A model generated the notes under the pieces. That model saw nothing but the letters and a program-made list of their open reading frames with translations. It had not been told where the DNA came from and searched no databases. From positions 62,001 to 126,000 of IMG/VR virus record IMGVR_UViG_3300010413_000018: DNA of 64,000 nt; one strand, 5' to 3'. Every line of letters begins with the position of its first letter. Position 1 is the first letter of the stretch. A program made the position numbers and the translations under genes. This DNA comes from a virus. Positions 4,231 to 61,423 of the stretch are shown in pieces.

Positions 4231-5991
4231 TTATGGCTCATGTAGGATAAAAGTTCCAGCACTTCCTCCGGCCGTTGTTGTGCCTAGTACAGAAATACCC
4301 AGTTCGACATGGTCAGTGGGAGTTTCTGGTGTTGGGTCTGTAATCATCACTAAATGTGTGTGAGCTGGTTTCATCAGCTCCACTATAGCGGTTATTCTTT
4401 CACGCTCTTCAGTGGTTAAAATTGTAGTTGGGCTATGAATGCTGAAAGAGTAAATTCCAGCTTGGCTTGGTCCGAGAATAGACGGCGTAGCTGCATCTAC
4501 TAGCGGCGCTCCTAATTCAGTGCCAGCTCCTGTAGTGTCGTCTGTAGAAGTCAGTACCCATCCGGTGTAATCATTGAATACATTAATTTCAACATCTATT
4601 CCTAGAAAGAAACGAATTACATCAATGATTCCGGCTGCGGTTCCTTTCAGCTTATAAATTCCAACTAACACACGGAGTAATCGCCGTTTATCAATTTCAG
4701 ACAGATCAAAGTCATCAAATGGATTTCCTAAGTCCGCCAGCATTGCGTCTAAAAAGTCTTCAGGCGCCGTATCAAGGTCGAGGATTTCAGTCCATTGGTC
4801 GACTGAAACTAGCAGTAAGTTTACAATTTCTTGAAAAATACTGATGAATAGTTCCAGCTCTTTATTTGCGTCTTCACTTTTATTAATACCAGGAATAAAA
4901 TCCCAAAGACGAAATCGGCGTCCGTTTGGAAACGGCGGAGAATACGCGTAAAAGTTAGATATGTTGTTGGGAGCAACAAACGCGTTGCCTTCTAGGTCTT
5001 CTACATTAGCAACTATCAGCATGTAAAGCGCGCCAAACGTTAACTCAATATCCGTGGTGAGATCTACTATACGATCGGAGTATTGGCTGACCGCTGTGAC
5101 TTCTACGCTGACTGCCGGTTTTGATAAGCGCTCAATTGTGTAGTTGCTAATGTTAAGCGCGTCAGCTGCACCCGAAGCACTTTCCATTGTTACAGGTTCA
5201 TTGAACGTAACGCGTAGAGTGTTTCCGTCCCGCCCTTGAACACTCGCTATTTGTGGAGCTTCGGTGTCTTCTGCGGTGAATGAATAAGTTTCGCTAAACG
5301 TCGGCGATGATAGCGCAACTTGTACTGAAACAATTTCAGTAGTGGTGAATTCATTAGGTGGTTCAAATTCAAACGCAAGTACGTCTGCAGCTGGGTTTGA
5401 ATGCGTGCCTAAGAAGCCATTCACGAAGTCAGCGCCATCCCACGCTATTACGCCACCGATAGTTACAACTAAGTCAGCATAATCGGGTGCGGTTCCATCG
5501 GTGGAAGCAATCTCAAAATAAATCAGTGAATCGCTAGGTATCCCAATTTGATTTGGTTCTGGATTCCGGTTGATTAAAACAACTGTGTCGTCAGCGTCGG
5601 TGCCGTTTACCGTTACGGAAGATCCGGCTCCAAAACCAAACATCACAACTATAGCCAACGTTCCGTTGGAAATAATTAATTCTGACGTAGTGCCATACAG
5701 ATCGCTGGTTATGCTTATTCCAGTGCTTTCTGCTACGGCCACTGCTCCGGTTAGTTGAGTGTTGATCGACGCAACTACTTCTGCAATTGTGGCCGCGCTT
5801 AAATCAGCAAACTGTGCTTCAGCGAAGGCTATGGTTTGCGCTGACCCTCCATCCACCGCAATAGTAAAGTTGCCACCGGATCCAAGATCAAACGGTCCTA
5901 ATTCATCTCCAGTACAAACCGCTTGCGTTGCGTTGAGTACATCTTCAACGACGTTGTCAACTTGGACGCTAGGTAGATTAATTAACGGCAT
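4231..5991 (-). CDS. Baseplate protein with tail-protein-I-like C-terminus
   Basis: A 586-residue protein. Residues about 32-130 form a beta domain that recurs in this phage's tail sheath. Residues about 135-345 look like Ig-type beta domains (for example TEAPQIASV, LRVTFNEPV). Residues about 360-480 match the tail protein I / phage tail-like pattern: a domain start near the RLWDFIPGIN segment and a KGTAAGI segment before FFLGIDVEINV. In P2-type tails, protein I links the wedge to the fibres. The gene follows small structural proteins and precedes the fibre gene, as expected. The N-terminal extension is unusually long for this family. Confidence 0.75.
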   Translation of the reverse strand: MPLINLPSVQVDNVVEDVLNATQAVCTGDELGPFDLGSGGNFTIAVDGGSAQTIAFAEAQFADLSAATIAEVVASINTQLTGAVAVAESTGISITSDLYGTTSELIISNGTLAIVVMFGFGAGSSVTVNGTDADDTVVLINRNPEPNQIGIPSDSLIYFEIASTDGTAPDYADLVVTIGGVIAWDGADFVNGFLGTHSNPAADVLAFEFEPPNEFTTTEIVSVQVALSSPTFSETYSFTAEDTEAPQIASVQGRDGNTLRVTFNEPVTMESASGAADALNISNYTIERLSKPAVSVEVTAVSQYSDRIVDLTTDIELTFGALYMLIVANVEDLEGNAFVAPNNISNFYAYSPPFPNGRRFRLWDFIPGINKSEDANKELELFISIFQEIVNLLLVSVDQWTEILDLDTAPEDFLDAMLADLGNPFDDFDLSEIDKRRLLRVLVGIYKLKGTAAGIIDVIRFFLGIDVEINVFNDYTGWVLTSTDDTTGAGTELGAPLVDAATPSILGPSQAGIYSFSIHSPTTILTTEERERITAIVELMKPAHTHLVMITDPTPETPTDHVELGISVLGTTTAGGSAGTFILHEP

Positions 5992-6389
5992 TATGCGGTC
6001 ACCAGTTCAAGTTTAATTTTTATCTCATTAGTGGATGGCGGTGTGTTGGCTAAAGCTAATGGTATGGCCATGTCGGTAAGCGTTCGCGTTATGTTGCTGA
6101 CTTCTATGGTTCTAATGGCGCGAGCAGTGCCATTTAGGCTTAAAGTTAGTTTCCAAGCATAGCCAGAAAGTAATGACGACGGCGGAACAATGCGTACGTT
6201 TACTCTAATGAATTTTGCTTCTGGGTCTAAAACTATATCTTGTTTAATTTGATGATAATCACCTAAACCCATACGCATTTCTTGGTTCAATGCGTGCCCA
6301 AGCTCATACGTGTACGATCCATCTGCAGCATAATCAGATGCTATGCGCCCTTGCGCCGTACCAATATCTAATGAAAATGGGCTACCCAC
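5991..6389 (-). CDS. Small beta-rich virion protein, unknown
   Basis: A 132-residue protein with a GTG start preceded by AGGA at a suitable distance. It is soluble and beta-rich, with no signal peptide. Its stop overlaps the ATG of the tail-I-like gene by one base. The position among baseplate and fibre genes suggests a structural or adaptor role. No family was recognised. Confidence 0.6.
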   Translation of the reverse strand: MGSPFSLDIGTAQGRIASDYAADGSYTYELGHALNQEMRMGLGDYHQIKQDIVLDPEAKFIRVNVRIVPPSSLLSGYAWKLTLSLNGTARAIRTIEVSNITRTLTDMAIPLALANTPPSTNEIKIKLELVTA

Positions 6390-6401
6390 GATAATTTCCT
6401 A

Positions 6402-7133
6402 TTAAAGTTGCCTGGCTACCTCGATGTGGTCCACGTACGCTCGTCGGTTTGCGCCGTTACTATAAAATCCAAATCCGGCATATCCCGATGTGTACGGAGA
6501 CAATCCAGTGTTAACGCCTAGCGCGTCATCAATAAAACCTGCAATCGTTGGGTATTGGGCTCCTTCCATTCCTGAAATTAATGACCATGATGGCGCAGTT
6601 ACTGCGTTTACGGTTAAGTCATTAATGTATGCTTGAAGAATGACGTCTCCAGTGCCTTCCACGATCATATCGAGGCGAAGGTGCAGCCAAGTGTCTTCTT
6701 CGTACGCACTGGACGAACGCAATAAAATGCGCGGACTTAGATCTGGGTCTGGAGCAGCATCAGCTAAGCCTTCGCTGAGCGGTCCTTTACGTAGAATAAT
6801 GTGATGCGGGTCATTATCACCTAATCCCAGCATATACGCTGCATCAGAAACAGTAGCGCCTTGTAATCCAAGAAAAATGAATGGTGCGAACTCAGTAGCT
6901 CCGCCACCAGGCGCTCGTTTTATAGCCGCGCGAATACTTCCGCCTTTTGCCATTGGAGCGAAGTTAGCTTGATTGTTATTTAGGGCCACTACGCCTTCGT
7001 CGGTTTCAATACTGTTAAAACCGTACACAAAGCTACTTCCACCGTTAGGTTTAACCACGCCAGCAGTCACACCGCGCTTGATGTAAGATTGTGATAGTGA
7101 GTTAGTGATTACTGTCCAATCTGAGCTTGCCAT
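6402..7133 (-). CDS. Concanavalin/LamG-like tail protein
   Basis: A 243-residue protein of beta-strand character. Segments such as WLHLRLDMIVEGTGDVILQ and GYAGFGFYSN, and a closing YVDHIEV strand, resemble the jelly-roll of laminin-G or concanavalin-like carbohydrate-binding domains. It could serve as a glycan-binding part of the tail tip. It is flanked by the FExxW-repeat protein and a small beta protein. The fold was judged by eye; no ligand is implied. Confidence 0.6.
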   Translation of the reverse strand: MASSDWTVITNSLSQSYIKRGVTAGVVKPNGGSSFVYGFNSIETDEGVVALNNNQANFAPMAKGGSIRAAIKRAPGGGATEFAPFIFLGLQGATVSDAAYMLGLGDNDPHHIILRKGPLSEGLADAAPDPDLSPRILLRSSSAYEEDTWLHLRLDMIVEGTGDVILQAYINDLTVNAVTAPSWSLISGMEGAQYPTIAGFIDDALGVNTGLSPYTSGYAGFGFYSNGANRRAYVDHIEVARQL

Positions 7134-7135
7134 TG

Positions 7136-7996
7136 CTACACTCCTGTTAATTCTTCAGTCCAGTATATTGCTGGATTGGCTTTTACCATTTTTGTTCCAG
7201 TGCCAACTGTAGTGAGGTCGACTGAACCGCTACCTTCTTCTGCTTCTACCTCAAACGTGTCGGTTGTTGCTGAAGCAATCCAATACGGTGTGTCTTCGTC
7301 TAGTCCTTCAGGCACTGAGCTTTCATCATCGTAAGCATAGAAGTAAACAATATCACCGTCTGAGAATCCATGCGCAGTAATCGTAATGGCATTACCGCTT
7401 GTGTCGACTGATTCTATTGTTTGGTCAAAAACTACTGATTCAAAGTTTTCATAGTTGTAAGTTGTAGCGGGATAATTAAAGGCAGCCATGGTGGGTGAAA
7501 AACTAGCGCCTTTAATGTATGAGTTTTCGTTATCTTTCCATCCTGCTTCAAATGCGTCGTATGTCGATGATCCGAACAATGCGCTAGACAAGTCTGCTGC
7601 TTCAAAAGCAAATATAATGGTGCCCCAATCTGATTCAAAGTCTTCGAAGTCTTCGGAATTAAATTCAGCATACTCTATTGAATCCAGGTCAAACGATCCT
7701 TGCGGTAGCGCCCAGTTGTTTTCGTAATCTTCAAAAATTTGTTGGCTTGGCCCGATGTCAAAAATTGCAAATTCATCTACTGTTGGGTCTAACGTAAAAA
7801 TCATTTCTTGGGTGAGATCGGGCCAACCCGTTTCAAATGTTTCACGCGGGTAGCCTTCATCTCCTGGATCTCCTGAATCTGAAAAAGCAGCGTATTCTTC
7901 TTCAGTTCCGTATTCAGTGACAGTCCAGTCCGCAGGTCGGCCGGTCGGTGCCGGTGACGTGGCTGCTGTTTCAAAACTGTTGTTATCTACACTCAT
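7136..7996 (-). CDS. Acidic virion protein with FExxW-type repeats
   Basis: A 286-residue, strongly acidic protein. The central part has four or five copies of a short motif of form F-E-x-x-W: FETGW, FEDYENNW, FEDFESDW, YDAFEAGW and a weaker YNYENFESV. They sit roughly 30-40 residues apart. The C-terminal third is a beta domain (ITITAHGFSDGD...) as seen in phage structural proteins. It overlaps the baseplate J gene by 4 bases (ATGA type). It is probably a virion component; the repeats may mediate assembly. Confidence 0.65.
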   Translation of the reverse strand: MSVDNNSFETAATSPAPTGRPADWTVTEYGTEEEYAAFSDSGDPGDEGYPRETFETGWPDLTQEMIFTLDPTVDEFAIFDIGPSQQIFEDYENNWALPQGSFDLDSIEYAEFNSEDFEDFESDWGTIIFAFEAADLSSALFGSSTYDAFEAGWKDNENSYIKGASFSPTMAAFNYPATTYNYENFESVVFDQTIESVDTSGNAITITAHGFSDGDIVYFYAYDDESSVPEGLDEDTPYWIASATTDTFEVEAEEGSGSVDLTTVGTGTKMVKANPAIYWTEELTGV

Positions 7997-9486
7997 ACTA
8001 GGTCAAGGCCAGTTTCTGCGTTTAAAATAGTTACGGTTCCCAAAATGGGAAACTCGTACGGTTCTACACTTAAATCGCTGGATTCGTCGTTGATCGTCAA
8101 AGATCCAGGACTGTCATTTATTTTTCGCACACCTGTCGTATCTCGTATTACATTGTAAATGTTACTATAGGCTAGTTCGTTGTCAATTTTATACCCAAAG
8201 TCGATGTTTTCATTGGTGCTACCGTCGCTGTTTTCTAAGTCAAAAAACGCTGCTAAGTTGGCGCGGATGGCCGCGTCTACTGTGGCTGCTGACGCTCCAG
8301 ATGATAGGTATACTGATACTTGAATATTAACAGTAAGATATGTCGGATCTTCCATGTTCACAATAAATGTAAGCGTGCATGGATACGTTTCGGTTACTTG
8401 CGTTTCAACCGCATCTTTTAGTGTTTGCGTAGGAGTTCCACTACCAGTAGGTACTACGTATAGTTCACCTTGGTTTTCCGGTATGGTTTCTCTTTCATTA
8501 CTGGTTAACATTAGCGCGCGTGCAACTCCGGATACTTTCAGTGCGTTAATTTCGAAGTCTTCACGTGCTACAGTTCGGTTTAACGTACGAAGAGACAATG
8601 GGGCAAGTTCGCGAATGCTCTCTACTGTTTGGCGATTAGCACCTCCAGACGCCGCTGAAAGGTTTGTAACGGATACTTGGACAGTTGTGCCGAACGAGTC
8701 CGTATACGCGCTGTCAGCACGCACTATAGTGCCAGGATTTACGTTCCCGTCAGTGCCACCACCAGTTTTGTAAGTAAAATTAATAGTTCCTTGTGGTATT
8801 GCTCCATTGACGTCATTTCCAAAGCGAACCGTAGCACGATCATTTTCATCAACCACAACCGTAAAGTGGCGATCTGTAGATTCCGAATCCAAGAAATCAT
8901 CTACTTGAGTGTACGCACCATTATCTGCTGAGATTGTCATTGAATCATCAAGATATGGAGAATCATCTAGTTGATATTCTTGGTTGGCTAAACTGTTGGA
9001 CGCTACTGATTGTGACGACGGGGAGCTGTTTTCTACTTCAAAAATAATTGATGGTGGATTAGTGCCAGCTGGAATTGTTACTGTTGATAGTGCTTGAAAT
9101 ACCACTGGGTTGGAAATCTCTTGAGTGCGAAATGTATCGCCAGCGTTGATCGTTACGCTTCCTGTGGGAACTGCCCCAAGGGTTAGGGTTAGTTCGGCGG
9201 TAGCCGCTGATGCACCTTGCGGAGTGTAGTTTACAAGCTTGGCTAGACCAAGCATTGTCTTTCTAAGCTGAGCCGTTGAAATTCGCGATTCGCGAGATTG
9301 ATTATCTTGATAATAAAGCAGTACATCACTGGTAAAGGCAAACAGCTCTAGCAAAATGTTTCCAAAATTAGCTATGTTAAAATCGGTCCAATCTGGAAAC
9401 GCAGAGCGCACCAGATTAATTAATCTGGAACGTATACTATCGAAGTCTTTATCAGTGTAGTCGAGGTTTGTCGGTAGAATAGTCAT
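7993..9486 (-). CDS. Baseplate J-like wedge protein
   Basis: A 497-residue protein. The N-terminus (DYTDKDFDSIRSRLINLV...FPDWTDF) and a helical segment (LLELFAFTSDVLLYYQDNQSRES) are typical of phage J / T4 gp6-type baseplate wedge proteins. Beta-rich regions follow, and the C-terminal part (VARALMLTSN; INIYN-like segment SNIYNVIRDTTGV) fits the family. Wedge proteins form the ring that triggers sheath contraction. It lies next to the gp25/gpW-like gene as in Mu and P2. The length is normal for the family. Confidence 0.88.
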   Translation of the reverse strand: MTILPTNLDYTDKDFDSIRSRLINLVRSAFPDWTDFNIANFGNILLELFAFTSDVLLYYQDNQSRESRISTAQLRKTMLGLAKLVNYTPQGASAATAELTLTLGAVPTGSVTINAGDTFRTQEISNPVVFQALSTVTIPAGTNPPSIIFEVENSSPSSQSVASNSLANQEYQLDDSPYLDDSMTISADNGAYTQVDDFLDSESTDRHFTVVVDENDRATVRFGNDVNGAIPQGTINFTYKTGGGTDGNVNPGTIVRADSAYTDSFGTTVQVSVTNLSAASGGANRQTVESIRELAPLSLRTLNRTVAREDFEINALKVSGVARALMLTSNERETIPENQGELYVVPTGSGTPTQTLKDAVETQVTETYPCTLTFIVNMEDPTYLTVNIQVSVYLSSGASAATVDAAIRANLAAFFDLENSDGSTNENIDFGYKIDNELAYSNIYNVIRDTTGVRKINDSPGSLTINDESSDLSVEPYEFPILGTVTILNAETGLDLV

Positions 9487-44351: not shown

Positions 44352-47105
44352 TTACCCTACCGTTTGGACGCCAATACTATTATGAGCGCCAGCTACTCTA
44401 CGCGCCAGTTCTCGCGCAAACCAGCTCGCCATCAAACGATCGCCTGTGTGTGCTTTTGGATCATAGTACAGCATTTCTTCAATCCATAGCCTAATTTGTG
44501 GGTCGGTTGCTTCTTTACCTTTACTAGGAATAATCCATCGGTGATTAGCAAATTCAGTAGCTAGAGCTTCAATACCGAACGTGGGATTAGCCTTGTTTTT
44601 TCCAGTGGTGAACGGCACTAACGGGATCAATTCTGGCCCTTGCTCTAGCACAAACTGAAGAATAAAGTCTTGGGCATTGTGCACTATAAAATCTTCAACG
44701 GTAAAACTTTCGTCTTCTTCTACAACTAAATTGTATACTGTTTGGTTGCATTGTGTGTAAGGATCTTGTTCGATACTTGGGACTTTAGCCCAAGCATGCC
44801 CATCTTCAAATAGTAGTTGGCCTCTATGGTCTTTGTATCCTTTAATTTTGTCTTGTTCCCACCACGTATGCCAATGTATGCGTTCAACGTCTAAAGTCAT
44901 CTGCTGTTTTAATTTTTTTGTAGCGCTGCGGCTCATTAATAAATTATAAATTTGGTTTCTGTTGATGACTCTACCTTCAATAATTGATGGTTGCGCGCCT
45001 CTTCTACCAATGCGTAAAGATGTTGACAGCTCAGCTTCTGATAAGGTAGTGCGGGCAAACAGCATCCAATTGCGAGAAATGCTAGTTCCGCGCATAACAA
45101 ATGATGGATGATTTGTTGTTTTGTTTATAACACTAATATTACCATCCCCTAATAACCATCCACGTACGATAGCTAGTCTAAGTTCTAACGGCCATCCTAG
45201 CCATTTTATAGGCAAACATTTTTTAGTACCAACCCCACATTTTAACGCATCAGCTAATGCGGCACTGTTGGCAATTACGCGTAGGGTGCTTGGTGTTGAA
45301 CCAACTGTTACGCGTACTTTGCAGCCAATTTTTTCTTGCACAGTTTGTTGTATAAATTGAGCTAGATGTTGTTCTTTACTGGATAAAGTCCATGTTACTT
45401 GGCTTCGTGTCGTATGTCCTTCAGCCATAAATAATCCAAGCACAACCGCAAAGTTTTCATCTATAACAATGCGTTTTGAGCAATCTCTGGTCGTTTTTCT
45501 TAATATAATTTGTGCTTTTTTCTTTGGCCATTTAGGCACCGCAATAGCTGTGTAAGCCGCTTTATCGCGAAATCCATAACTAATCCATTGTGCTTTTCCA
45601 GTTGGGCGATGCTTTCCTACATCTGGGTTTTTATAAGAACCTTTTATCCGTCCAGCTTCACGCATATAAAACCAGTGATTGGGTGTAGTTTCAACTGGTA
45701 GGCAACCTTTTCCTTGAGCAGTTACTTTTGTACGAGATTGGCCTTTTATAAGATCTTTTACTGCTCTCCAGCGATTATTATGGGTCCAAACTAATTCACC
45801 AATTTTAATATTTTCTATAGGCTTATAACCGGTTTTTGTTAGCACTAAGGTACCTTCAGGAAAACAAGAATTGTTCTCGACGCACACTATGCTACCAAAC
45901 CGACGGTGTACGTTTATAATCTTAGCCACTATTTCCGGTCCGGTCCATTTCCCAGCTTGGACTTCTACCACTTGACGAAAGTTGTTCGGATGCAAAAAGA
46001 TAGTGAATATTACCGTTTCATCAGCGCTCGCGTTGCGTTGAACCCCTAAGTCAACACCGGTTAAAAAGCCACCTTCTACACCTTCCGTTAGTTTGGCAAT
46101 TGCTTCGACAATTTCAATACGTTCGTCTACTTCTTCAACTTCGTCCAGCCAACTAGCAGGGGCAAGGTCTGGATGGTAAGCATAAAATTCTGACGCGGTA
46201 GTAGCGGTGCAGCATTTATCCCCAGCCTCTAAACACGCATCCATCCATTCTTGCTTGAATCGCGATTCTGAATCATCCCGCGCTTTACACATCATCTGCC
46301 GCGCAAATTCAGTTGGTCCAAGTTCAACGCGCTTTCTGGTAATACGATCTTGCGGCCAAGCTTCCGGCCATGCAGCGGCACCCTTTGAGTCTATTAACGG
46401 AAATCGCATGGTGTGCCAAACTGCGGTTTGTTTTTCAAATCGGTGCAACATATCGTCCGGATGCCACGCGGTACCAATAATAATCACGCGTGCATGTCGT
46501 GTTAAAGTACCAACTATAGTTGCATGATACCAGTCATACAAATCACGCCGTTGTGACGGATTCATTGTATTTTCAAAGCTTAGAATATCGTCCAAAATGG
46601 CCAAGTCGATACGTGCGCCGAGAACCTGTCCGTGGACACCGATTGCTTGTACTGAAGGATCTCTTTTCGGGCGTTCCGATCGTACGGTAATAGCCGATGA
46701 AGTCCACGGTTCTCCAGGTATCAAACGTGGAAAAATTAACCGTAGCATTTCATTGGTTTCAATATAGTTAGCAATGTTCCGTACGATTTTTTCCGCTTGT
46801 CTGAAAGTGTTCGAGATTATTGCTATTCTTATGTCTGGATTTTTTCCCAGCTCGAATAACGGCCGGCCGACTGCCATTTGGGTCGTTTTACCAGATTCGC
46901 GATGTGCGTAAAGTAGTACTCGGTCGTGAATGTCGCAGGCTTCATGCCATATTTCATGGCATGGTGCTTGAATAACGGTGTTCCCGGAAAACTCATCTTT
47001 CAAAACTAACTCAAGAAAGGTATTAATTTCAGACCGTGCAGTAACTATGCGCGCTTGTCTGGCACGTTCAGCGATTGTGAATTGGTCGGTTTGGTTTTTT
47101 TCCAT
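44352..47105 (-). CDS. terL: Terminase large subunit interrupted by an intein
   Basis: A 917-residue precursor from ATG at 47105; the TTG two codons earlier is less likely. The N-terminal ATPase has a deviant Walker A (HRESGKTTQ) and Walker B (IDLAILDDI). The nuclease starts at GVDLGVQRNASADETV. After CVENNS, at the nuclease motif carrying a catalytic acid, a 397-residue intein (414-810) is inserted, and the host protein resumes with AQDFILQ. The spliced enzyme would be about 520 residues, the usual length. Terminase cuts the concatemer and pumps DNA into the prohead. Confidence 0.9.
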   Translation of the reverse strand: MEKNQTDQFTIAERARQARIVTARSEINTFLELVLKDEFSGNTVIQAPCHEIWHEACDIHDRVLLYAHRESGKTTQMAVGRPLFELGKNPDIRIAIISNTFRQAEKIVRNIANYIETNEMLRLIFPRLIPGEPWTSSAITVRSERPKRDPSVQAIGVHGQVLGARIDLAILDDILSFENTMNPSQRRDLYDWYHATIVGTLTRHARVIIIGTAWHPDDMLHRFEKQTAVWHTMRFPLIDSKGAAAWPEAWPQDRITRKRVELGPTEFARQMMCKARDDSESRFKQEWMDACLEAGDKCCTATTASEFYAYHPDLAPASWLDEVEEVDERIEIVEAIAKLTEGVEGGFLTGVDLGVQRNASADETVIFTIFLHPNNFRQVVEVQAGKWTGPEIVAKIINVHRRFGSIVCVENNSCFPEGTLVLTKTGYKPIENIKIGELVWTHNNRWRAVKDLIKGQSRTKVTAQGKGCLPVETTPNHWFYMREAGRIKGSYKNPDVGKHRPTGKAQWISYGFRDKAAYTAIAVPKWPKKKAQIILRKTTRDCSKRIVIDENFAVVLGLFMAEGHTTRSQVTWTLSSKEQHLAQFIQQTVQEKIGCKVRVTVGSTPSTLRVIANSAALADALKCGVGTKKCLPIKWLGWPLELRLAIVRGWLLGDGNISVINKTTNHPSFVMRGTSISRNWMLFARTTLSEAELSTSLRIGRRGAQPSIIEGRVINRNQIYNLLMSRSATKKLKQQMTLDVERIHWHTWWEQDKIKGYKDHRGQLLFEDGHAWAKVPSIEQDPYTQCNQTVYNLVVEEDESFTVEDFIVHNAQDFILQFVLEQGPELIPLVPFTTGKNKANPTFGIEALATEFANHRWIIPSKGKEATDPQIRLWIEEMLYYDPKAHTGDRLMASWFARELARRVAGAHNSIGVQTVG
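44676..45866 (-). mobile_element. Intein with LAGLIDADG homing endonuclease
   Basis: The 397-residue insert starts with Cys (CFPEGTLVLTKTG, block A), contains the block B-like segment TTPNHW, two LAGLIDADG-type helices (VLGLFMAEG and VRGWLLGDG), and ends with FIVHN. It interrupts the terminase at its conserved nuclease site, a typical intein target. The residue after the terminal Asn is Ala, not Cys, Ser or Thr, and the penultimate block F His is also replaced (DESF). This puts standard splicing chemistry in doubt. Confidence 0.88.
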
Positions 47106-47138
47106 GCTCAATTTTAGCCTGATTTGCCCAGATCTGCT

Positions 47139-48145: not shown

Positions 48146-48480
48146 TGCAACTTTTAGAATTTCAAGCTGCAAATGCCGTCAACCCCCATATTGATAATAT
48201 GCTGCGCTTAATGAACAGCATGTGTATTGCAATGCAAAAAGCTCCCAGCGTTAGCTTATTAAAATTAAAGCGCGCGGCTATTCTACGAGTACTTGATACC
48301 GAAACGTGTGTTTGTCCTGGTGTTTTTAAATTTCGAGAATTTGCGCACGTCGCCAGCGGTTTAATTGCTGCAGCCGGGCACAGTGCGGATCCTAGCTGGG
48401 CACCACTAGTGCGCCGATTCAATGCAGAGATTGAATTATACGAAACCGCGTTAGCGTTGGTACGAGAAACGGTTGTATAA
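48145..48480 (+). CDS. Helical protein 4 of the rightward island
   Basis: A 111-residue helical protein with a GTG start overlapping the previous TAG (TAGTG). It has several Cys residues in the middle (TCVCPGVF). The C-terminal helix (EIELYETALALVRE) resembles that of the leftward gene at 63279 (SIEFFQTAFALV). Its 3' end overlaps the end of the leftward glycosyltransferase gene by 30 bases. Function unknown. Confidence 0.6.
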   Translation: MQLLEFQAANAVNPHIDNMLRLMNSMCIAMQKAPSVSLLKLKRAAILRVLDTETCVCPGVFKFREFAHVASGLIAAAGHSADPSWAPLVRRFNAEIELYETALALVRETVV

Positions 48481-49152
48481 ATCACTTAAGCACAGCTGTA
48501 GAGCTTCGAGAATGCTGTCTTGATTTAAGTGAGAGCTGGAGTTGCGGTATTCAATGGGAATTTCGATGTACGACAATTTACTCGCTAGCGCTCGCGCGCG
48601 CACTTCGCTTTGATAGTAATGGCCTTCAGCTTTAAAACTATGCTGATGGGTATGAAGTAAAGCTCCACGCGTATATCCTATGAAACCACTAGTTGCGTCC
48701 TTGAATTTAGATCTGTGGCAAAAATTAAAAAGCCAGGTTCCAAGCTTACTGAGCCAGTAGCGTTTTCTGGATCCTAGATACGATCCGTGATACAAGCGTT
48801 CGCCAAATACAATATCCACGTTGGTGTGTTTTGCCATTCGTATGAAACGCGGTATTTCTGTTGGATCATGACTACCGCCAGCATCCATTTCAATAATAAA
48901 ATCCACATTATCATGCAACGCGGCTAGTAAACCGGTCGAATAAACTGCGGGCAGTCCACGCCGAGTTGGAGGCACATTAATTACTATTGCTCCAGCTTCA
49001 CGCGCTACTTCCGCTGTGTTATCTACGCTTGTATCGTTGCAGACGTAAACACAGTCTGCATGCTTAAGCGCTTCTTTTACTATTGCCCCTATACTTAACT
49101 CTTCGTCCCGACACGGTATTACTACCGCACAATACGCGTTGGATGAAATCAT
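48451..49152 (-). CDS. GT2 glycosyltransferase, DPM1-like
   Basis: A 233-residue protein. The fold signature is clear: VVIPCRDEELSIGAIVKEAL at the start, VCNDTSVDNT, then EMDAGGSHDP (about 88-97) at the position of the DxD metal site, followed by VFGERL and GFIGYTRGALL. The DxD Asp-x-Asp is Asp-Ala-Gly here, so metal handling may differ. Family members transfer sugar from a nucleotide to a polyprenol or acceptor. It is coupled (ATGA) to the BGT-like gene, suggesting a joint role. Confidence 0.8.
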   Translation of the reverse strand: MISSNAYCAVVIPCRDEELSIGAIVKEALKHADCVYVCNDTSVDNTAEVAREAGAIVINVPPTRRGLPAVYSTGLLAALHDNVDFIIEMDAGGSHDPTEIPRFIRMAKHTNVDIVFGERLYHGSYLGSRKRYWLSKLGTWLFNFCHRSKFKDATSGFIGYTRGALLHTHQHSFKAEGHYYQSEVRARALASKLSYIEIPIEYRNSSSHLNQDSILEALQLCLSDLYNRFSYQR

Positions 49153-50225
49153 TTGAGGTTCCTTATTGCTTCTTTAAGGGTAATACCTTGCTTGAATCTT
49201 GTGATGTTAGTGATCATATTCCAATGCCGTTTAACGGCTGCCATACGCGCGTCTGACGATAGCTTTAATAAGGCATCAAATTGTTCTTTGAATTCAACCG
49301 TTGAAACTACAATCAGATCAGAACAACCTGTAGCTTCTAAAGTGGTCTTTACACTGGGCTGGATAAAGTTGCTGTATAAAACTGGTAGTCCAGCGCGCCC
49401 ATTTTCAAAGAAGCGCTCCGCAACAAAATCGTTTTTGGCGTAAGCCGGATCCGTCATGTACAGTGTGCATAAATACTTGTTCAAGAGTGAAGCTACCGCG
49501 TCTTCCCGCACGCGCCCTTTAAAAGTTATGTTGGGGGCGCGTAACTGCACACGACTTCGCCGACTCCACTGACCGTAAATGTCCACCGGAATACCGGTGC
49601 CTTTAAACCAGCGGGTTAACTCTTTCATTCTACCTGGACGGTCAGACCCAAAGTACGCGACTTTGGGTATTGGATCTAAATGCACTTCTTGGCGACGTCG
49701 TTCTAATTCAACCAGTTCAAAGAAGCACTGACAGTGGGTGTAATTCACTTCACCGTAGCCAGAACTCTTACTCTTGCTGGCGCGCACTAACCGTTCGTCG
49801 ACTTGAGTCATTAAAACCCAGTCCTTATTCAGCATTGGATCGGGCAGTGCCTTTCCTTTGATTGGACTGGGTTGAAACATGAACGGTAAAGCTACGTCCC
49901 ATTGGGCGTAAACTGCCTTTCCAGAGTAGGTCGATAGTAACTGGTACGTTCGCTCGTATCCTGGAAACATTGCGTTCGACGGACCGGTTAGGATGAACGC
50001 TAGGTCAAAGTCTTGGATACTGGGAATCGACGGGATGTACGCAGTAATTCCAGACCCTGGACGCTTCAAGCTACAAGCTGTCGCTTTAGTGGCCTGGTCT
50101 ACGACAAAAACATCGCCCAGTTCGGCCAAATACTTAATCACGAAGCTTGTTATAGTACCACCACCAACCGCGCTTTCGATGTCAGTTTGGAGCGGTAGTC
50201 CGTATCTCCATAAAGCGATCTTCAC
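49149..50225 (-). CDS. GT-B glycosyltransferase, T4 DNA beta-glucosyltransferase-like
   Basis: A 358-residue protein with a GTG start behind AAGGAG. Aligned by eye with T4 beta-glucosyltransferase: QWDVALPF (Asp110) pairs with the T4 catalytic-site Asp100 motif, YFGSDRPGR with the UDP-contact arginine loop, IYGQW with the following strand, and ERFFE (Arg271, Glu274) with Arg269/Glu272. The T4 enzyme glucosylates 5-hydroxymethylcytosine in DNA. A DNA sugar-transfer role is therefore the leading guess; the acceptor base is unknown. Confidence 0.7.
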   Translation of the reverse strand: MKIALWRYGLPLQTDIESAVGGGTITSFVIKYLAELGDVFVVDQATKATACSLKRPGSGITAYIPSIPSIQDFDLAFILTGPSNAMFPGYERTYQLLSTYSGKAVYAQWDVALPFMFQPSPIKGKALPDPMLNKDWVLMTQVDERLVRASKSKSSGYGEVNYTHCQCFFELVELERRRQEVHLDPIPKVAYFGSDRPGRMKELTRWFKGTGIPVDIYGQWSRRSRVQLRAPNITFKGRVREDAVASLLNKYLCTLYMTDPAYAKNDFVAERFFENGRAGLPVLYSNFIQPSVKTTLEATGCSDLIVVSTVEFKEQFDALLKLSSDARMAAVKRHWNMITNITRFKQGITLKEAIRNLK

Positions 50226-50228
50226 CGG

Positions 50229-51485
50229 CTACTCCTTAGTTGGATCGTATTCGTAAACAACGTTGCCGTTATCATCCAGTTTAACCGGTTTCATGATACC
50301 GCCAAAAAGAGTGTACGGTGCTTGGCCCATGCGTGGATGATTCCATAGCCAGCGCATGTATTCGAACATCGACATGTCGGCGTATTTTGATCGGTTAGTA
50401 GCGGATCCGGTATTAAACCCTTCGGCTTGGCGGAACAAAAAATCTTTAAGATGCTCCATTTCGCCGGACACTTCGTCCCAACGTACTGACCCGTTTTTCT
50501 TGCACTTCAATAGCGCAACAGTAAATTGACCTTGGCTGTAATTCCAATCAGGCGGAAGTCCGCAACACGATCCGTTATGGCAACGCTCTTTGAAGTGCGC
50601 GTCTGAAACGTAAAAACGAATGCCGGCCAAGTTGGCCGCCTTTTCCATCTGATCAACGAACGGTCGTTTTAGGTTGCGATTCAAGCGTAGATAGCCACTG
50701 CCCAACGAATATTTTTTGTAAAAATCGGTGTAGTCAAAACCGGCTTGTGCCGAAATTATTGGCAAACGTTTTTGCAGTAATACCGCGCGCGTTTCATAAC
50801 AGAAAAACTCAGTACTCATAGCAGTCGCACCTGCTTCACCGGCTAGCCGAATTAATTCTGTATGAGTTGGGTCAGTAATTCCAATCATGAATGGACGCAA
50901 CCTAAGAGTGGCACCACCACAGTCGAGTTTGGCTATCTTTTCAATAGCCTTCAACCGCTCTTTTGGAGTAGGAACGCCGCGCTCAATAACTCTGGCTTTG
51001 CGTTCATCCAGCGTTATAATGCTGACTTTTACGTTCCAGTTCTTTTGGCCGCGAAACAAATCGGTGTAGCGTTCATCGTCAAGCCACCATGTCCCTTTCG
51101 TGGAAAAGCACAGCGGATAGTTCAACTCTTTGAAAAACTGGAGCAGTTCGAGGCCTACTCCGTGCTTCTTTTCAAACCAGCAAAATGGATCGGATAACCC
51201 TCCCCATTGCATTACTTTACGTGCGTCGACGTATTTACGAAATTGTCCGAGTCCGCGATTTACTTTTTCGTTCAAGAAAATCGCTTTTACCTTTTCAATG
51301 TTTACCGGTCTGACTTCACCGGCTCCATACGCTTCTTTACCACCACCGACTGAACGGCGGTAAGAAGCGAAGCAGTACAAGCATCCAAAGCTACAGTTGG
51401 AATACTGGTCAAACGTCATCGGCATTGAACAGTCAGCTACCTCAGCAGACCAGCGTGGAGAAGGATAAAACTTACCGCACGCCAT
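50229..51485 (-). CDS. Radical SAM protein
   Basis: A 418-residue protein. Cys31, Cys35 and Cys38 form the CxxxCxxC iron-sulfur motif (CSFGCLYCF), followed by segments typical of SPL-type radical SAM enzymes (VMQWGGLSDPF, LCFSTKG, VKVSIITLD). A second Cys cluster (CHNGSCCG) lies near residue 315. Radical SAM enzymes use S-adenosylmethionine to make a 5'-deoxyadenosyl radical. It is coupled to the ParB-like and BGT-like genes. A base-modifying or repair role is possible. Confidence 0.85.
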   Translation of the reverse strand: MACGKFYPSPRWSAEVADCSMPMTFDQYSNCSFGCLYCFASYRRSVGGGKEAYGAGEVRPVNIEKVKAIFLNEKVNRGLGQFRKYVDARKVMQWGGLSDPFCWFEKKHGVGLELLQFFKELNYPLCFSTKGTWWLDDERYTDLFRGQKNWNVKVSIITLDERKARVIERGVPTPKERLKAIEKIAKLDCGGATLRLRPFMIGITDPTHTELIRLAGEAGATAMSTEFFCYETRAVLLQKRLPIISAQAGFDYTDFYKKYSLGSGYLRLNRNLKRPFVDQMEKAANLAGIRFYVSDAHFKERCHNGSCCGLPPDWNYSQGQFTVALLKCKKNGSVRWDEVSGEMEHLKDFLFRQAEGFNTGSATNRSKYADMSMFEYMRWLWNHPRMGQAPYTLFGGIMKPVKLDDNGNVVYEYDPTKE

Positions 51486-51487
51486 GA

Positions 51488-52147
51488 TTAATTCTTCCCC
51501 AGTATTTCTGAAGCCATGTACATGGTTTTATGACCGTCGATTCCTAAGTAATCGACGATCTCTTGGCGCTCTTCTTCCGACGTGTACACGATGATAAAAC
51601 TTTGCGTGCGGTTGTCTTCGCCTTCAATAGGTGGAGGCGGTAGCGCGTCCGGAATACCGGGATCTTCGAAGTCGTCCAGCATACCTTCAAGCACGTCTTC
51701 GTGAATACCGGTTAGGCTCAAATCAAACTGAGAATCGTCCAACATGGTGACGATTTCTTTCAACATGTCTTGATCAAGGTGTGCTAATTCTGGGATGGTA
51801 TTGTCGGCTACTAAATCAGCCAACTCTGCTCGTTCATCGGCATAGTCTTGGTAGTCAACAGGTACCGATGACATACCTAACCGTTCAGCTGCCATTAAAC
51901 GACCATGTCCACGAATTATAAAGCCGGAAAGTTTGCTTACAGTGATAGGTGAGCGCCATCCATTGCCTTGAAACACTTTGGCTAGCGCGGTTACCTGATG
52001 GTCTGGGTGTACGTTTGGATTCTTTGGGTGAGGTTTCATTTCACCAATGGGTACCAACTCGTCGTGCCCACAGTAAATTTTAATTCCATCTACTTCAGCT
52101 TGTTTAACAATCGGATCGCTAGTTTCTGTTTTCTTAGATTTGCCCAT
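51488..52147 (-). CDS. ParB/Srx-domain protein
   Basis: A 219-residue protein. Residues about 30-135 show the ParB N-terminal/sulfiredoxin-like domain: PIGEMKPHPKNPNVHP, then GFIIRGHGRLMAAERLG (80-87 GHGRLMAA), then ADERAELADLVADNTI. Such domains, often next to DNA methylases in phages, act as nucleotide-using (CTPase-like) or regulatory modules. The acidic C-terminus lacks the ParB HTH domain. It heads the cassette with the radical SAM gene. Confidence 0.8.
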   Translation of the reverse strand: MGKSKKTETSDPIVKQAEVDGIKIYCGHDELVPIGEMKPHPKNPNVHPDHQVTALAKVFQGNGWRSPITVSKLSGFIIRGHGRLMAAERLGMSSVPVDYQDYADERAELADLVADNTIPELAHLDQDMLKEIVTMLDDSQFDLSLTGIHEDVLEGMLDDFEDPGIPDALPPPPIEGEDNRTQSFIIVYTSEEERQEIVDYLGIDGHKTMYMASEILGKN

Positions 52148-52358
52148 TTTCCCTCATCCTTGTAAAGACTTCTTCTACCATTTTTCGGGTTACGAAGTCG
52201 TTATCAATTTTTGTATTGCCGTACGCAAAGCTTTTCATCTGTGCGTCGCGTTCTTCTGACGTCATGGTTATCTTTTTACTTTTGTGAAGTAACCAACGAA
52301 AGCGCATGCTGGAGGCATAGCGTGAAACTGGTATTGTTGGAATGGTTGCCTCTTGCAT
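52134..52358 (-). CDS. Small basic protein, unknown
   Basis: A 74-residue protein from ATG at 52358, chosen because AAGGAAGG lies directly upstream; a GTG/other start a few codons earlier lacks this. It overlaps the ParB-like gene by 14 bases, so it is cotranscribed with the cassette. Basic N-terminal half and helical C-terminus; no family recognised. Confidence 0.6.
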   Translation of the reverse strand: MQEATIPTIPVSRYASSMRFRWLLHKSKKITMTSEERDAQMKSFAYGNTKIDNDFVTRKMVEEVFTRMRENGQI

Positions 52359-52478
52359 AATCCTTCCTTTCTTACGCAAGCTTAATGTAAAAATACTAAG
52401 TAGTAAAATTTACGAATACTGGTTATTTAAAAATAAGCTAAGCAGATTGGTGGTTTGATTAGTCTGGTCAGTGAGCTG

Positions 52479-52865
52479 TTACTCCTCTTCTTCGTCCTCC
52501 AAAACGAAGTCTTCTTCGCAATGCGGGCAAACGTACACGACGTTTTCGCCTTCGATCGCTTCGACGCAAACGTCTTCACCGCAATGAGGACACTCATACA
52601 TGTCGCACTCTTCTTCTTCTTCTTCTTCTTCTTCGTCTTCTTCATCTTCTTCCATGACGAACTCTTCGCCACAGTGCGGACACTTGTAGCACTCTTCTTC
52701 TTCTTCTTCGTCCATGTCTTCGTCGTACGCTTCGTACGCTAGTTGAAGGTAAAACGCTGAGTTCAGCGTCCAGCCTTCCAGTTCCATTTCATCGTGGCAC
52801 CAACCGTACTCATCGTCGTAGTACCAACCGCAGCTCTCAAGATATTCCATTCTTTCTTCCGGCAT
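52479..52865 (-). CDS. Extremely acidic protein with three CPHC zinc motifs
   Basis: A 128-residue protein in which about half the residues are Asp or Glu. CPHC occurs at 62-65, 92-95 and 113-116; extra Cys residues at 59, 87 and 100 could complete zinc sites. Long Glu runs separate the motifs (for example about 74-86). Start ATG has AGGAG. The negative charge suggests DNA mimicry or binding of a basic partner; zinc-ribbon plus acid-rich designs occur in anti-host proteins, but this is only a guess. Confidence 0.7.
   Translation of the reverse strand: MPEERMEYLESCGWYYDDEYGWCHDEMELEGWTLNSAFYLQLAYEAYDEDMDEEEEEECYKCPHCGEEFVMEEDEEDEEEEEEEEECDMYECPHCGEDVCVEAIEGENVVYVCPHCEEDFVLEDEEEE
52611..52709 (-). 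repeat. Trinucleotide (TTC/GAA) repeat tracts
   Basis: The + strand has eight perfect TTC units at 52611-52634, extended with interruptions to about 52653, and five more at 52695-52709. They encode the polyglutamate runs of the acidic zinc protein. Such tracts can slip and vary in length. Confidence 0.9.
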
Positions 52866-60406: not shown

Positions 60407-60592
60407 CTACTGTAAACTACGCTTCAATTTAAAAATATTCGCATCAGAAACATATCCTTGCTCAGTAGCTAACAACGCATAGGCTACAGCTAATTCTTCA
60501 TCAACTTGACCAGTGTTTCCGCACAACGCACAAGTTCTTCCAAAATCTGCGTGTTTACTTAACCATTCACACTCTGGACACTTTACTTGCAT
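60407..60592 (-). CDS. Small zinc-ribbon protein A
   Basis: A 61-residue protein: CPEC and CALC Cys pairs in the first 25 residues form a zinc ribbon, then a short helical tail with LAVAYALLATEQGY. The same layout and AxAYxLL motif occur in the proteins at 62265 and 63813. The ATG directly follows the MTase stop (TAAATG), so translation is coupled. Function unknown. Confidence 0.65.
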   Translation of the reverse strand: MQVKCPECEWLSKHADFGRTCALCGNTGQVDEELAVAYALLATEQGYVSDANIFKLKRSLQ

Positions 60593-61423
60593 TTACAGTT
60601 TTCTGTATTCCGGCTCAAACTCAGCAAGACGCGCGCGCATGATCGTCACCGCATCCGGATTGTTATCCACCATCACAAACTGGCGTCCAAGCCGGCCGGC
60701 TGCTTCACCGAATGAACCACTGCCGGCAAAGAAGTCGAGCAGCAGTTCGCCGGGATTGGAGTGCACTTTGACGATTCTGTTCAATATTCCCAACGGTTTC
60801 TGGGTAGCGTAACCGGTTTTCTCTTTGCCGTTAGTAGCTACGATCGTGTGCCACCAACAGTCGGTCAGCGTCTTACCGCGCGCGGCTTTTTCCGGGCCAA
60901 CCATTTCCGGAGCCATGTACGGTATGCGCTCAATCTCGTTATAATGGAACGTGTATGAGCGCGGATTCTTGGCATACCAAAGGATTGTGTCATGCTTCGC
61001 CGACCAACGTGTCTTTGAGCGTGCGCCGTAGTCGTAAGCCCAAACTATTTCGTTGATGAAGGACGGCCGGCCGAAGATTTCGTCCAGCATGATCTTACAG
61101 TAGTGCACTTCGCGATAGTCCATGTGAAGAAATAAGCTTCCAGTCGGTTTCAAAACTCGGAACGCTTCCGCTAAGCGCACCCGAATAAACGCGTGGAAGT
61201 TGAAGAACGTGTCGTTGTAACCTACACTCGGCCGTTTTTTCGTTTTGTAGCGGCGCCCTCCGAAACCTATACGATCGCCTTGAGCGTCTTTTTCCACCGC
61301 GATCCGGTTACGTTGCTGCTTCTTACCGGTGTTGAACGGTGGATCAACGTAAATCAAATCCACCGATCCGTCCGGCAGTGACTTTAAAAAACGTAAGTTA
61401 TCGCCGAGCACAATCGCGTTCAT
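60593..61423 (-). CDS. DNA methyltransferase (N6-adenine or N4-cytosine)
   Basis: A 276-residue protein. DPPF (27-30) is the catalytic motif IV; FAGSG (232-236) is the SAM-binding motif I, in the order IV then I that marks the beta class. GLGLF-type elements and a variable target-recognition segment lie between (about 100-200). It may protect phage DNA from host restriction. Target unknown. It is separate from the glycosylation cassette. Confidence 0.88.
   Translation of the reverse strand: MNAIVLGDNLRFLKSLPDGSVDLIYVDPPFNTGKKQQRNRIAVEKDAQGDRIGFGGRRYKTKKRPSVGYNDTFFNFHAFIRVRLAEAFRVLKPTGSLFLHMDYREVHYCKIMLDEIFGRPSFINEIVWAYDYGARSKTRWSAKHDTILWYAKNPRSYTFHYNEIERIPYMAPEMVGPEKAARGKTLTDCWWHTIVATNGKEKTGYATQKPLGILNRIVKVHSNPGELLLDFFAGSGSFGEAAGRLGRQFVMVDNNPDAVTIMRARLAEFEPEYRKL

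What the first reader, a model, noticed from the sequence alone, without database searches (positions are those of the whole stretch)
48451..52147. Candidate DNA glycosylation/hypermodification cassette
Four coupled genes encode a ParB/Srx-like protein, a CxxxCxxC radical SAM protein, a GT-B enzyme that aligns with T4 DNA beta-glucosyltransferase, and a GT2 enzyme. In T-even phages beta-glucosyltransferase adds glucose to hydroxymethylcytosine. Radical SAM enzymes are known in phage thymidine hypermodification pathways. This set, with no hydroxymethylase gene visible in the window, could be a distinct base- or sugar-modification pathway. Inferred from motifs and gene coupling.
Basis: partly seen in the sequence, partly recalled or inferred. 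Interest (0 to 1): 0.78.

Follow-up and report, generated by a model that had tools for sequence, protein, structure and literature searches.

The report
Radical-SAM DNA hypermodification cassette in phage
A virus of unknown host carries a four-gene cassette that very likely decorates its own DNA with sugar, and comparison with over a hundred related loci suggests that its radical-SAM enzyme makes the chemical handle on the base without oxygen, standing where oxygen-dependent TET enzymes stand in relatives.

Summary
In detail: ParB-like, radical SAM (rSAM), T4-BGT-like GT-B and GT2 genes lie head to tail with junctions of 2, 3 and -4 nt. The GT-B is a remote homologue of T4 DNA beta-glucosyltransferase (hhalign 98.7%, E 3e-16, full length, catalytic Asp100 kept). 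The rSAM model is confident (pLDDT 91.6); its best solved match is spore photoproduct lyase, which acts on thymine in DNA. The rSAM family is large (398 IMG/VR loci). Its neighbours are the known DNA-hypermodification kit: ParB, TAGT glycosyltransferases, amino-acid:DNA transferase (ADDT), P-loop kinases, SAM synthetase, terminase. TET/JBP contigs carry the same kit, but all TET contigs examined outside one lineage lack the rSAM, and thymidylate-synthase-fold hydroxymethylases are nearly absent. One sister pair differs by insertion of ParB-rSAM as a unit. Named hosts of the rSAM are anaerobes; TET-carrying phage isolates infect aerobes. Best reading: the rSAM installs the acceptor (likely hydroxymethyl on thymine) in DNA without O2, and the BGT-like GT-B, perhaps with GT2, glycosylates it. 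DNA hypermodification is about 0.85 likely, the rSAM as handle-maker about 0.55; the exact base is open. No biochemistry exists, and key papers could not be read.

The parts
51488..52147 (-). ParB/Srx-fold protein (219 aa, GxGR box 'RGHGRLMAA'), the constant partner of the rSAM and also of phage TET; probable DNA-binding or targeting subunit
   Evidence: PHROG ParB families to 9e-37; found with rSAM in 22/31 and with TET in 9/11 dereplicated lineages
50229..51485 (-). radical SAM enzyme (418 aa), spore-photoproduct-lyase-like fold; proposed maker of the acceptor group on a DNA base
   Evidence: PF04055; AF2 pLDDT 91.6; Foldseek top PDB hits all SPL (E 3.4e-8); C31/C35/C38 98-100% conserved, plus C19, C307, C308 (~99%) and C229 (95%)
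51372..51395 (-). CxxxCxxC motif (C31, C35, C38) for the [4Fe-4S] cluster
   Evidence: alignment; in L042/L043 an intein is inserted directly before the third Cys
49149..50225 (-). GT-B glycosyltransferase, remote homologue of T4 DNA beta-glucosyltransferase; proposed sugar transfer to the base handle
   Evidence: hhalign 98.7% / E 3e-16 over profile columns 1-344; D110 = T4 D100, R196/R199 = T4 R191/R195, D259 = D258, Y262 = Y261
48451..49152 (-). GT2 glycosyltransferase (233 aa, no C-terminal membrane region seen by eye); adds a second sugar or makes a sugar donor - role uncertain
   Evidence: PF00535 8e-15; GtrB-like PHROG 5e-12; AglJ-like NCBIfam 5e-15, the NCBIfam hits far below curated cut-offs
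52134..52379 (-). 81-aa ORF overlapping the ParB start; possible first gene of the cluster, function unknown, membership uncertain
   Evidence: no meaningful family hit

Best explanation
This is a post-replicative DNA hypermodification cassette. Step 1 (inferred): the ParB-like protein brings the spore-photoproduct-lyase-like rSAM to DNA. The enzyme cleaves SAM, and the 5'-deoxyadenosyl radical abstracts hydrogen from a pyrimidine C5-methyl, most likely of thymine. The resulting radical is converted to a hydroxymethyl-type handle without molecular oxygen. Step 2 (inferred from homology): the BGT-like GT-B transfers a sugar from a nucleotide sugar to that handle, giving a base resembling base J or glucosyl-hmC. 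Step 3 (weak): GT2 adds a second sugar or supplies a donor. In relatives the same ParB-rSAM core feeds other decorators: TAGT glycosyltransferases, or a kinase plus ADDT. The core thus does the job that ParB-TET/JBP does in phages of aerobic hosts, and dUMP/dCMP hydroxymethylases do in T4- or ViI-type phages. Shown: homologies, conserved gene partnership, near-exclusion of rSAM and TET. Inferred: the reaction, the base, the sugar, protection from host nucleases.
For: (a) GT-B = BGT homologue with catalytic and UDP-site residues aligned. (b) rSAM fold = SPL, a DNA-thymine enzyme, whose published mechanism passes through a thymine methyl/allylic radical (PMC3742179, PMC5368176). (c) Partners of the rSAM: ParB, TAGT, ADDT, kinase, SAM synthetase, TerL. 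(d) TAGT-selected contigs not chosen by rSAM: 5 have rSAM without TET, 5 TET without rSAM, none both or neither. TET-selected contigs L101-L111: none carries the rSAM (L105 was searched as L085). (e) Hydroxymethylase fold PF00303 in 1/39 and 0/25 rSAM contigs; TET in 3/39 (one lineage) and 0/25. (f) L101 (parb-tet-tagt-spasm) against L164 (parb-tet-[parb-rsam]-tagt-spasm): the core inserts as a unit. (g) On the TAGT tree rSAM and TET labels swap at least 3 times. (h) SAM synthetase near rSAM in 4/31 lineages (26/99 at 95% identity), 0/11 TET lineages. (i) Named hosts of rSAM contigs are anaerobes; TET phage isolates infect aerobes, and Tonitrus of Rhodococcus has ParB + TET/JBP + aGPT-PPlase2 + 5hmU kinase (PMC11955845): the rSAM kit with TET in the rSAM's place.
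Against: No activity is known for any member. No conserved Cys lies at the sequence distance of the SPL H-donor, so the chemistry must differ from SPL. rSAM enzymes do not usually hydroxylate; water or another oxygen donor is assumed. One lineage (L016-L018) has rSAM and TET together, so rSAM may do a further step. Contigs are mostly fragments, so absences are soft. HMMs for the decorators were built mainly from rSAM loci. The host of this virus is unknown, so oxygen status is untested for the window itself.
Confidence: 0.57

Rival explanations
1. DNA hypermodification, but the rSAM acts late: it rearranges or tailors the sugar or amino-acid adduct (like the rSAM reported, from memory, in the phage M6 thymidine pathway), while the handle comes from an unseen or host enzyme.
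For: rSAM enzymes are known tailoring enzymes in phage pathways (general knowledge). One lineage has TET and rSAM together. Additional tailoring-type rSAMs (SPASM, B12-binding) sit in some loci.
Against: The rSAM family is constant while decorators change (TAGT only, ADDT+kinase, BGT-like), so there is no common late substrate. TET and PF00303 are absent from nearly all contigs with the rSAM. No relative of this rSAM is found in INPHARED by tblastn.
Confidence: 0.25
2. The two glycosyltransferases are unrelated to ParB-rSAM and glycosylate a virion protein or the host surface; ParB-rSAM is a separate DNA-repair or packaging module.
For: GT2 is closest to GtrB/polyprenyl-phosphate sugar transferases. 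ParB-rSAM pairs sit near terminase, and ~340-aa relatives occur without decorators.
Against: The GT-B is homologous to BGT, a DNA enzyme, full length. A BGT-like gene lies beside ParB-rSAM in a second virus (L029) and a second BGT-like type in L024/L025. TAGT and ADDT recur in the same place. The four genes are tightly coupled.
Confidence: 0.1
3. The rSAM is a repair photolyase (true spore photoproduct lyase) of the virus.
For: SPL is the best structural match.
Against: No conserved Cys where SPL has C141; partners are modification enzymes; many host bins are gut bacteria.
Confidence: 0.05

Closest known systems
Thymidine hypermodification system of TET/JBP type (ParB + TET/JBP + aGPT-PPlase2/ADDT + 5hmU DNA kinase, e.g. 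Rhodococcus phage Tonitrus, PMC11955845) and TET-TAGT phage systems
   Same: ParB-like partner, TAGT or ADDT+kinase decorators, often next to terminase
   Different: TET/JBP (O2-dependent) is absent and an SPL-like rSAM takes its place; the window uses a BGT-like GT-B and a GT2 instead of TAGT
T4 DNA beta-glucosyltransferase system
   Same: GT-B homologous over its full length with D100, R191, R195, D258, Y261 aligned
   Different: no dCMP hydroxymethylase (PF00303) in the record; no close sequence similarity
Spore photoproduct lyase / PA0069-Rv2578c rSAM proteins
   Same: radical SAM fold closest to SPL, CxxxCxxC
   Different: about 16% identity, extra conserved Cys pair CC307-308, no Cys at the C141 distance, different partners
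hmdU-based thymidine hypermodification (M6, ViI, phiW-14; PMC6449724) and E. coli phage EP_H11 (L064)
   Same: EP_H11 operon holds a GT-B of the BGT-like L024/L025 type, a GT-A and, by reading the sequences, ADDT-like and kinase-like genes
   Different: EP_H11 has a thymidylate-synthase-fold gene (the hydroxymethylase route) instead of the rSAM

Membership tests
T4-type DNA beta-glucosyltransferase (GT63) | homology to T4 BGT over both Rossmann domains | tested here: met
   hhalign 98.7%, E 3e-16, columns 1-344; controls at most 0.2%. Low-confidence AF2 model, top Foldseek hit 1j39 E 7e-7
T4-type DNA beta-glucosyltransferase (GT63) | catalytic Asp100 and UDP-site Arg191/Arg195 | tested here: met
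   D110, R196, R199 aligned
T4-type DNA beta-glucosyltransferase (GT63) | glucose transfer from UDP-glucose to 5hmC in DNA | not testable with these tools
   needs enzyme assay
T4-type hmC pathway | dCMP hydroxymethylase (thymidylate synthase fold) in the genome | tested here: not met
   no PF00303 in the 140,728-bp record (completeness unknown); ThyX present
TET/TAGT or JBP-type DNA hypermodification | Tet_JBP dioxygenase | tested here: not met
   none in G000
TET/TAGT or JBP-type DNA hypermodification | ParB-like partner plus DNA-base decorating enzymes (TAGT, ADDT, kinase) around the acceptor-maker | tested here: met
   met for the rSAM family; in the window itself the decorators are GT-B and GT2
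Radical SAM superfamily, SPL-like | CxxxCxxC and SPL fold | tested here: met
Spore photoproduct lyase proper | H-donor Cys (C141 in B. subtilis), 43 residues after the third cluster Cys | tested here: inconclusive
   no conserved Cys at that sequence distance (126, 229, 307, 308 instead); spatial equivalence not testable

The most novel reading that the evidence does not exclude
ParB-rSAM is an oxygen-independent counterpart of TET/JBP: an SPL-like radical SAM enzyme that functionalises the C5-methyl of thymine (or 5-methylcytosine) in intact DNA, used by viruses of anaerobes in place of O2-dependent dioxygenases as the first step of many hypermodification pathways. Here it feeds a BGT-like transferase to make a base-J-like DNA.
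Probability: 0.48. Interest if true: 0.93.

Novelty: new variant of a known kind. Interest (0 to 1): 0.82.

Why it matters
To my knowledge the established makers of the hydroxymethyl handle on DNA pyrimidines either act on the nucleotide pool (hydroxymethylases) or need O2 (TET/JBP). An anaerobic on-DNA alternative would explain how gut and rumen viruses modify their genomes, add a new reaction to radical SAM chemistry, and offer an enzyme tool for writing or reading base modifications. It also points to cultured strains (Bacteroides fragilis S82, Selenomonas ruminantium S137) whose prophage-like loci can be tested directly.

Tried and rejected
phmmer of the GT-B alone against PDB: no hit. Two-row profile against PDB: no BGT hit, so the 3-row profile hit needed the L025 protein; resolved by hhalign against a BGT family alignment with controls. 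AF2 of the GT-B is poor (pLDDT 47), so its Foldseek result is only supporting. GT-B relatives in IMG/VR: only one other contig, that of L029/L061. A TAGT alignment of 9 rows was too diverse to scan, so narrower alignments were used. Anaerobic ribonucleotide reductase NrdD as an oxygen marker: absent from all 41 contigs, rSAM and TET alike, so uninformative. Promoters and terminators: no more promoter-like sites than shuffles, terminator-like sites slightly more. Considered and rejected: T-even hmC pathway (no PF00303). The Iyer et al. 2013 and Lee et al. 2018/2022 papers are not held, so earlier mention of ParB-rSAM pairs in phages cannot be excluded; full-text searches found none.

Full report
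1. What is there. The window is 62001-126000 of a 140,728-bp virus record. On the minus strand four ORFs run head to tail: ParB-like 52147-51488, rSAM 51485-50229, GT-B 50225-49149, GT2 49152-48451, with junctions of 2, 3 and -4 nt. An 81-aa ORF overlaps the ParB start. Downstream, after four small plus-strand ORFs, lies an intein-bearing TerL (44352-47111). Domain searches confirm each call.

2. The GT-B is a BGT relative. One sequence alone finds nothing. A three-row profile finds T4 BGT at 1.5e-11, but that profile depends on a protein from L025. An independent test settles it: window + L029 GT-B against seven phage BGTs (T4, AB1I1L, Muldoon, S16, vipetofem, ATCCB, G3F9) gives 98.7%, E 3e-16, profile columns 1-344, while a generic GT-B, TAGT and ADDT give at most 0.2%. 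T4 D100 aligns with D110, R191/R195 with R196/R199, D258/Y261 with D259/Y262. The poor AF2 model still returns T4 BGT first.

3. The rSAM. Thirty-eight relatives came from IMG/VR in a first scan (31-63% identity over the 25 aligned) and 398 with the profile. None was found among 50,697 phage records by tblastn; only remote hits of a ~340-aa relative appear there. AF2 is confident (91.6) and the top PDB hits are all spore photoproduct lyase. SPL chemistry runs through a thymine methyl/allylic radical that is quenched by C141; if that Cys is lost, an external agent adds to the methyl (PMC3742179, PMC5368176). In 139 family members C31, C35, C38, C19, C307 and C308 are 98-100% conserved and C229 95%, but there is no conserved Cys at the C141 distance. 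The extra cysteines could form a catalytic thiol or a second cluster; that is speculation.

4. The company it keeps. Around the rSAM lie a ParB-like gene and a changing set: TAGT, ADDT, P-loop kinases, Tet_JBP (one lineage), SPASM or B12 rSAMs, Gly_transf_sug, SAM synthetase and TerL. Dereplicated at 70% identity of the key protein: 31 rSAM lineages with ParB 22, TAGT 14, ADDT 9, kinase 9, SAM synthetase 4, TET 1; 11 TET-only lineages with ParB 9, TAGT 9, ADDT 1, kinase 2, SAM synthetase 0. A phage-borne SAM synthetase fits an enzyme that consumes SAM for every base modified.

5. rSAM and TET take the same place. TAGT-selected contigs not chosen for rSAM split 5:5 into rSAM-only and TET-only, none with both or neither (four of the five rSAM contigs are near-identical, so about 2 against 5 lineages). 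TET-selected contigs L101-L111 carry no rSAM (L105 is the contig searched as L085). Hydroxymethylase-fold genes are nearly absent from rSAM contigs (1/39, 0/25), as is TET (3/39, one lineage; 0/25). rang nowhere, but the same search finds TET. The exception is instructive: L101 reads parb-tet-tagt-spasm, while its relatives L159/L164/L165 read parb-tet-parb-rsam-tagt-spasm, so ParB-rSAM moves as a unit. On the TAGT tree the labels are interspersed, with at least three changes forced by starred branches (quick tree, weak deep forks).

6. Oxygen. In the species-genome collection the close rSAM relatives (L188-L218) lie in contigs assigned to Bacteroides, Phocaeicola, Prevotella, Lachnospiraceae, Clostridia, Selenomonas, Methanobrevibacter, gut Spirochaetaceae and the like. 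Three titles (a Bacteroidetes/Chlorobi bin, a Patescibacterium, an unnamed bacterium) are undetermined, and none names a known aerobe (anaerobic habit from general knowledge of the taxa). TET-like genes in phage isolates belong to phages of Pelagibacter, Nonlabens/Persicivirga, Caulobacter, Synechococcus, Stenotrophomonas and Methylophilales; Tonitrus of Rhodococcus carries ParB + TET/JBP + aGPT-PPlase2 + 5hmU kinase. TET needs O2 (general knowledge). Host bins can be wrong and no background rate was computed, so this is a strong pattern, not a test. NrdD as a marker was uninformative.

7. Mechanism proposed. ParB + rSAM put a hydroxymethyl-type handle on a pyrimidine methyl in DNA, most likely thymine. 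This record encodes ThyX, dCMP deaminase and dUTPase, all of which feed thymidylate; kinase/ADDT partners elsewhere act on hmU in known systems (PMC6449724); and T4 BGT can glucosylate hmU (PMC4111573, abstract). The GT-B then glycosylates; GT2 may extend. Homology and partnership are shown; reaction, base and sugar are inferred.

8. Verdict. DNA hypermodification about 0.85; rSAM as acceptor-maker about 0.55. It is a new variant of a known kind; if the rSAM step is proven, the enzyme class itself would be new.

Noticed in passing
window 44352-47111 (-): Terminase large subunit with an in-frame intein (Hint_2 and LAGLIDADG_3 domains).
   Followed up: partly
L042 and L043, about 5790-8227 (+): The rSAM gene is interrupted by an intein inserted directly before the third Cys of CxxxCxxC; the N-part with the intein start and the C-part with the intein end are in separate ORFs.
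   Followed up: partly
L036:7001-8251 and L037:7001-8251 (+): TGA appears inside the rSAM where relatives have Gly (12 TGA also in TAGT of the same contigs), as in genetic code 25; probably viruses of Gracilibacteria/Absconditabacteria-like hosts.
   Followed up: partly
G000, e.g. window 60407-60592 (-) and many ORFs in L002: A family of about 33 small Cys-rich (CPxC...CPLC) zinc-ribbon-like ORFs repeated in this one genome.
   Followed up: no
G000 L002-L004 (first 60 kb of the record): SAM decarboxylase, ThyX, dCMP deaminase, dUTPase and uracil-DNA glycosylase genes in the same virus record.
   Followed up: no
window 60593-61423 (-): N4/N6-type DNA methyltransferase (PF01555, E 9e-45).
   Followed up: no
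L220-L239 (species-genome contigs, Clostridia, Faecalibacterium, Fusobacterium and others): Distant ~340-aa ParB-rSAM pairs in prophage-like regions, some upstream of terminase, without TAGT or ADDT: an older, unstudied branch.
   Followed up: partly
L029:8683-9963 (+): A B12-binding radical SAM protein between the rSAM and the BGT-like gene, suggesting an extra tailoring step in that virus.
   Followed up: no
L064 (Escherichia phage EP_H11, OP688485): Mostly unannotated operon with GT-A, BGT-like GT-B, ADDT-like, kinase-like and thymidylate-synthase-fold genes: a likely hypermodified coliphage that can be tested in the laboratory.
   Followed up: partly
window 52479-52865 (-): Very acidic protein with three CPHC zinc-ribbon motifs and poly-Glu/Asp runs just upstream of the cassette.
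   Followed up: no
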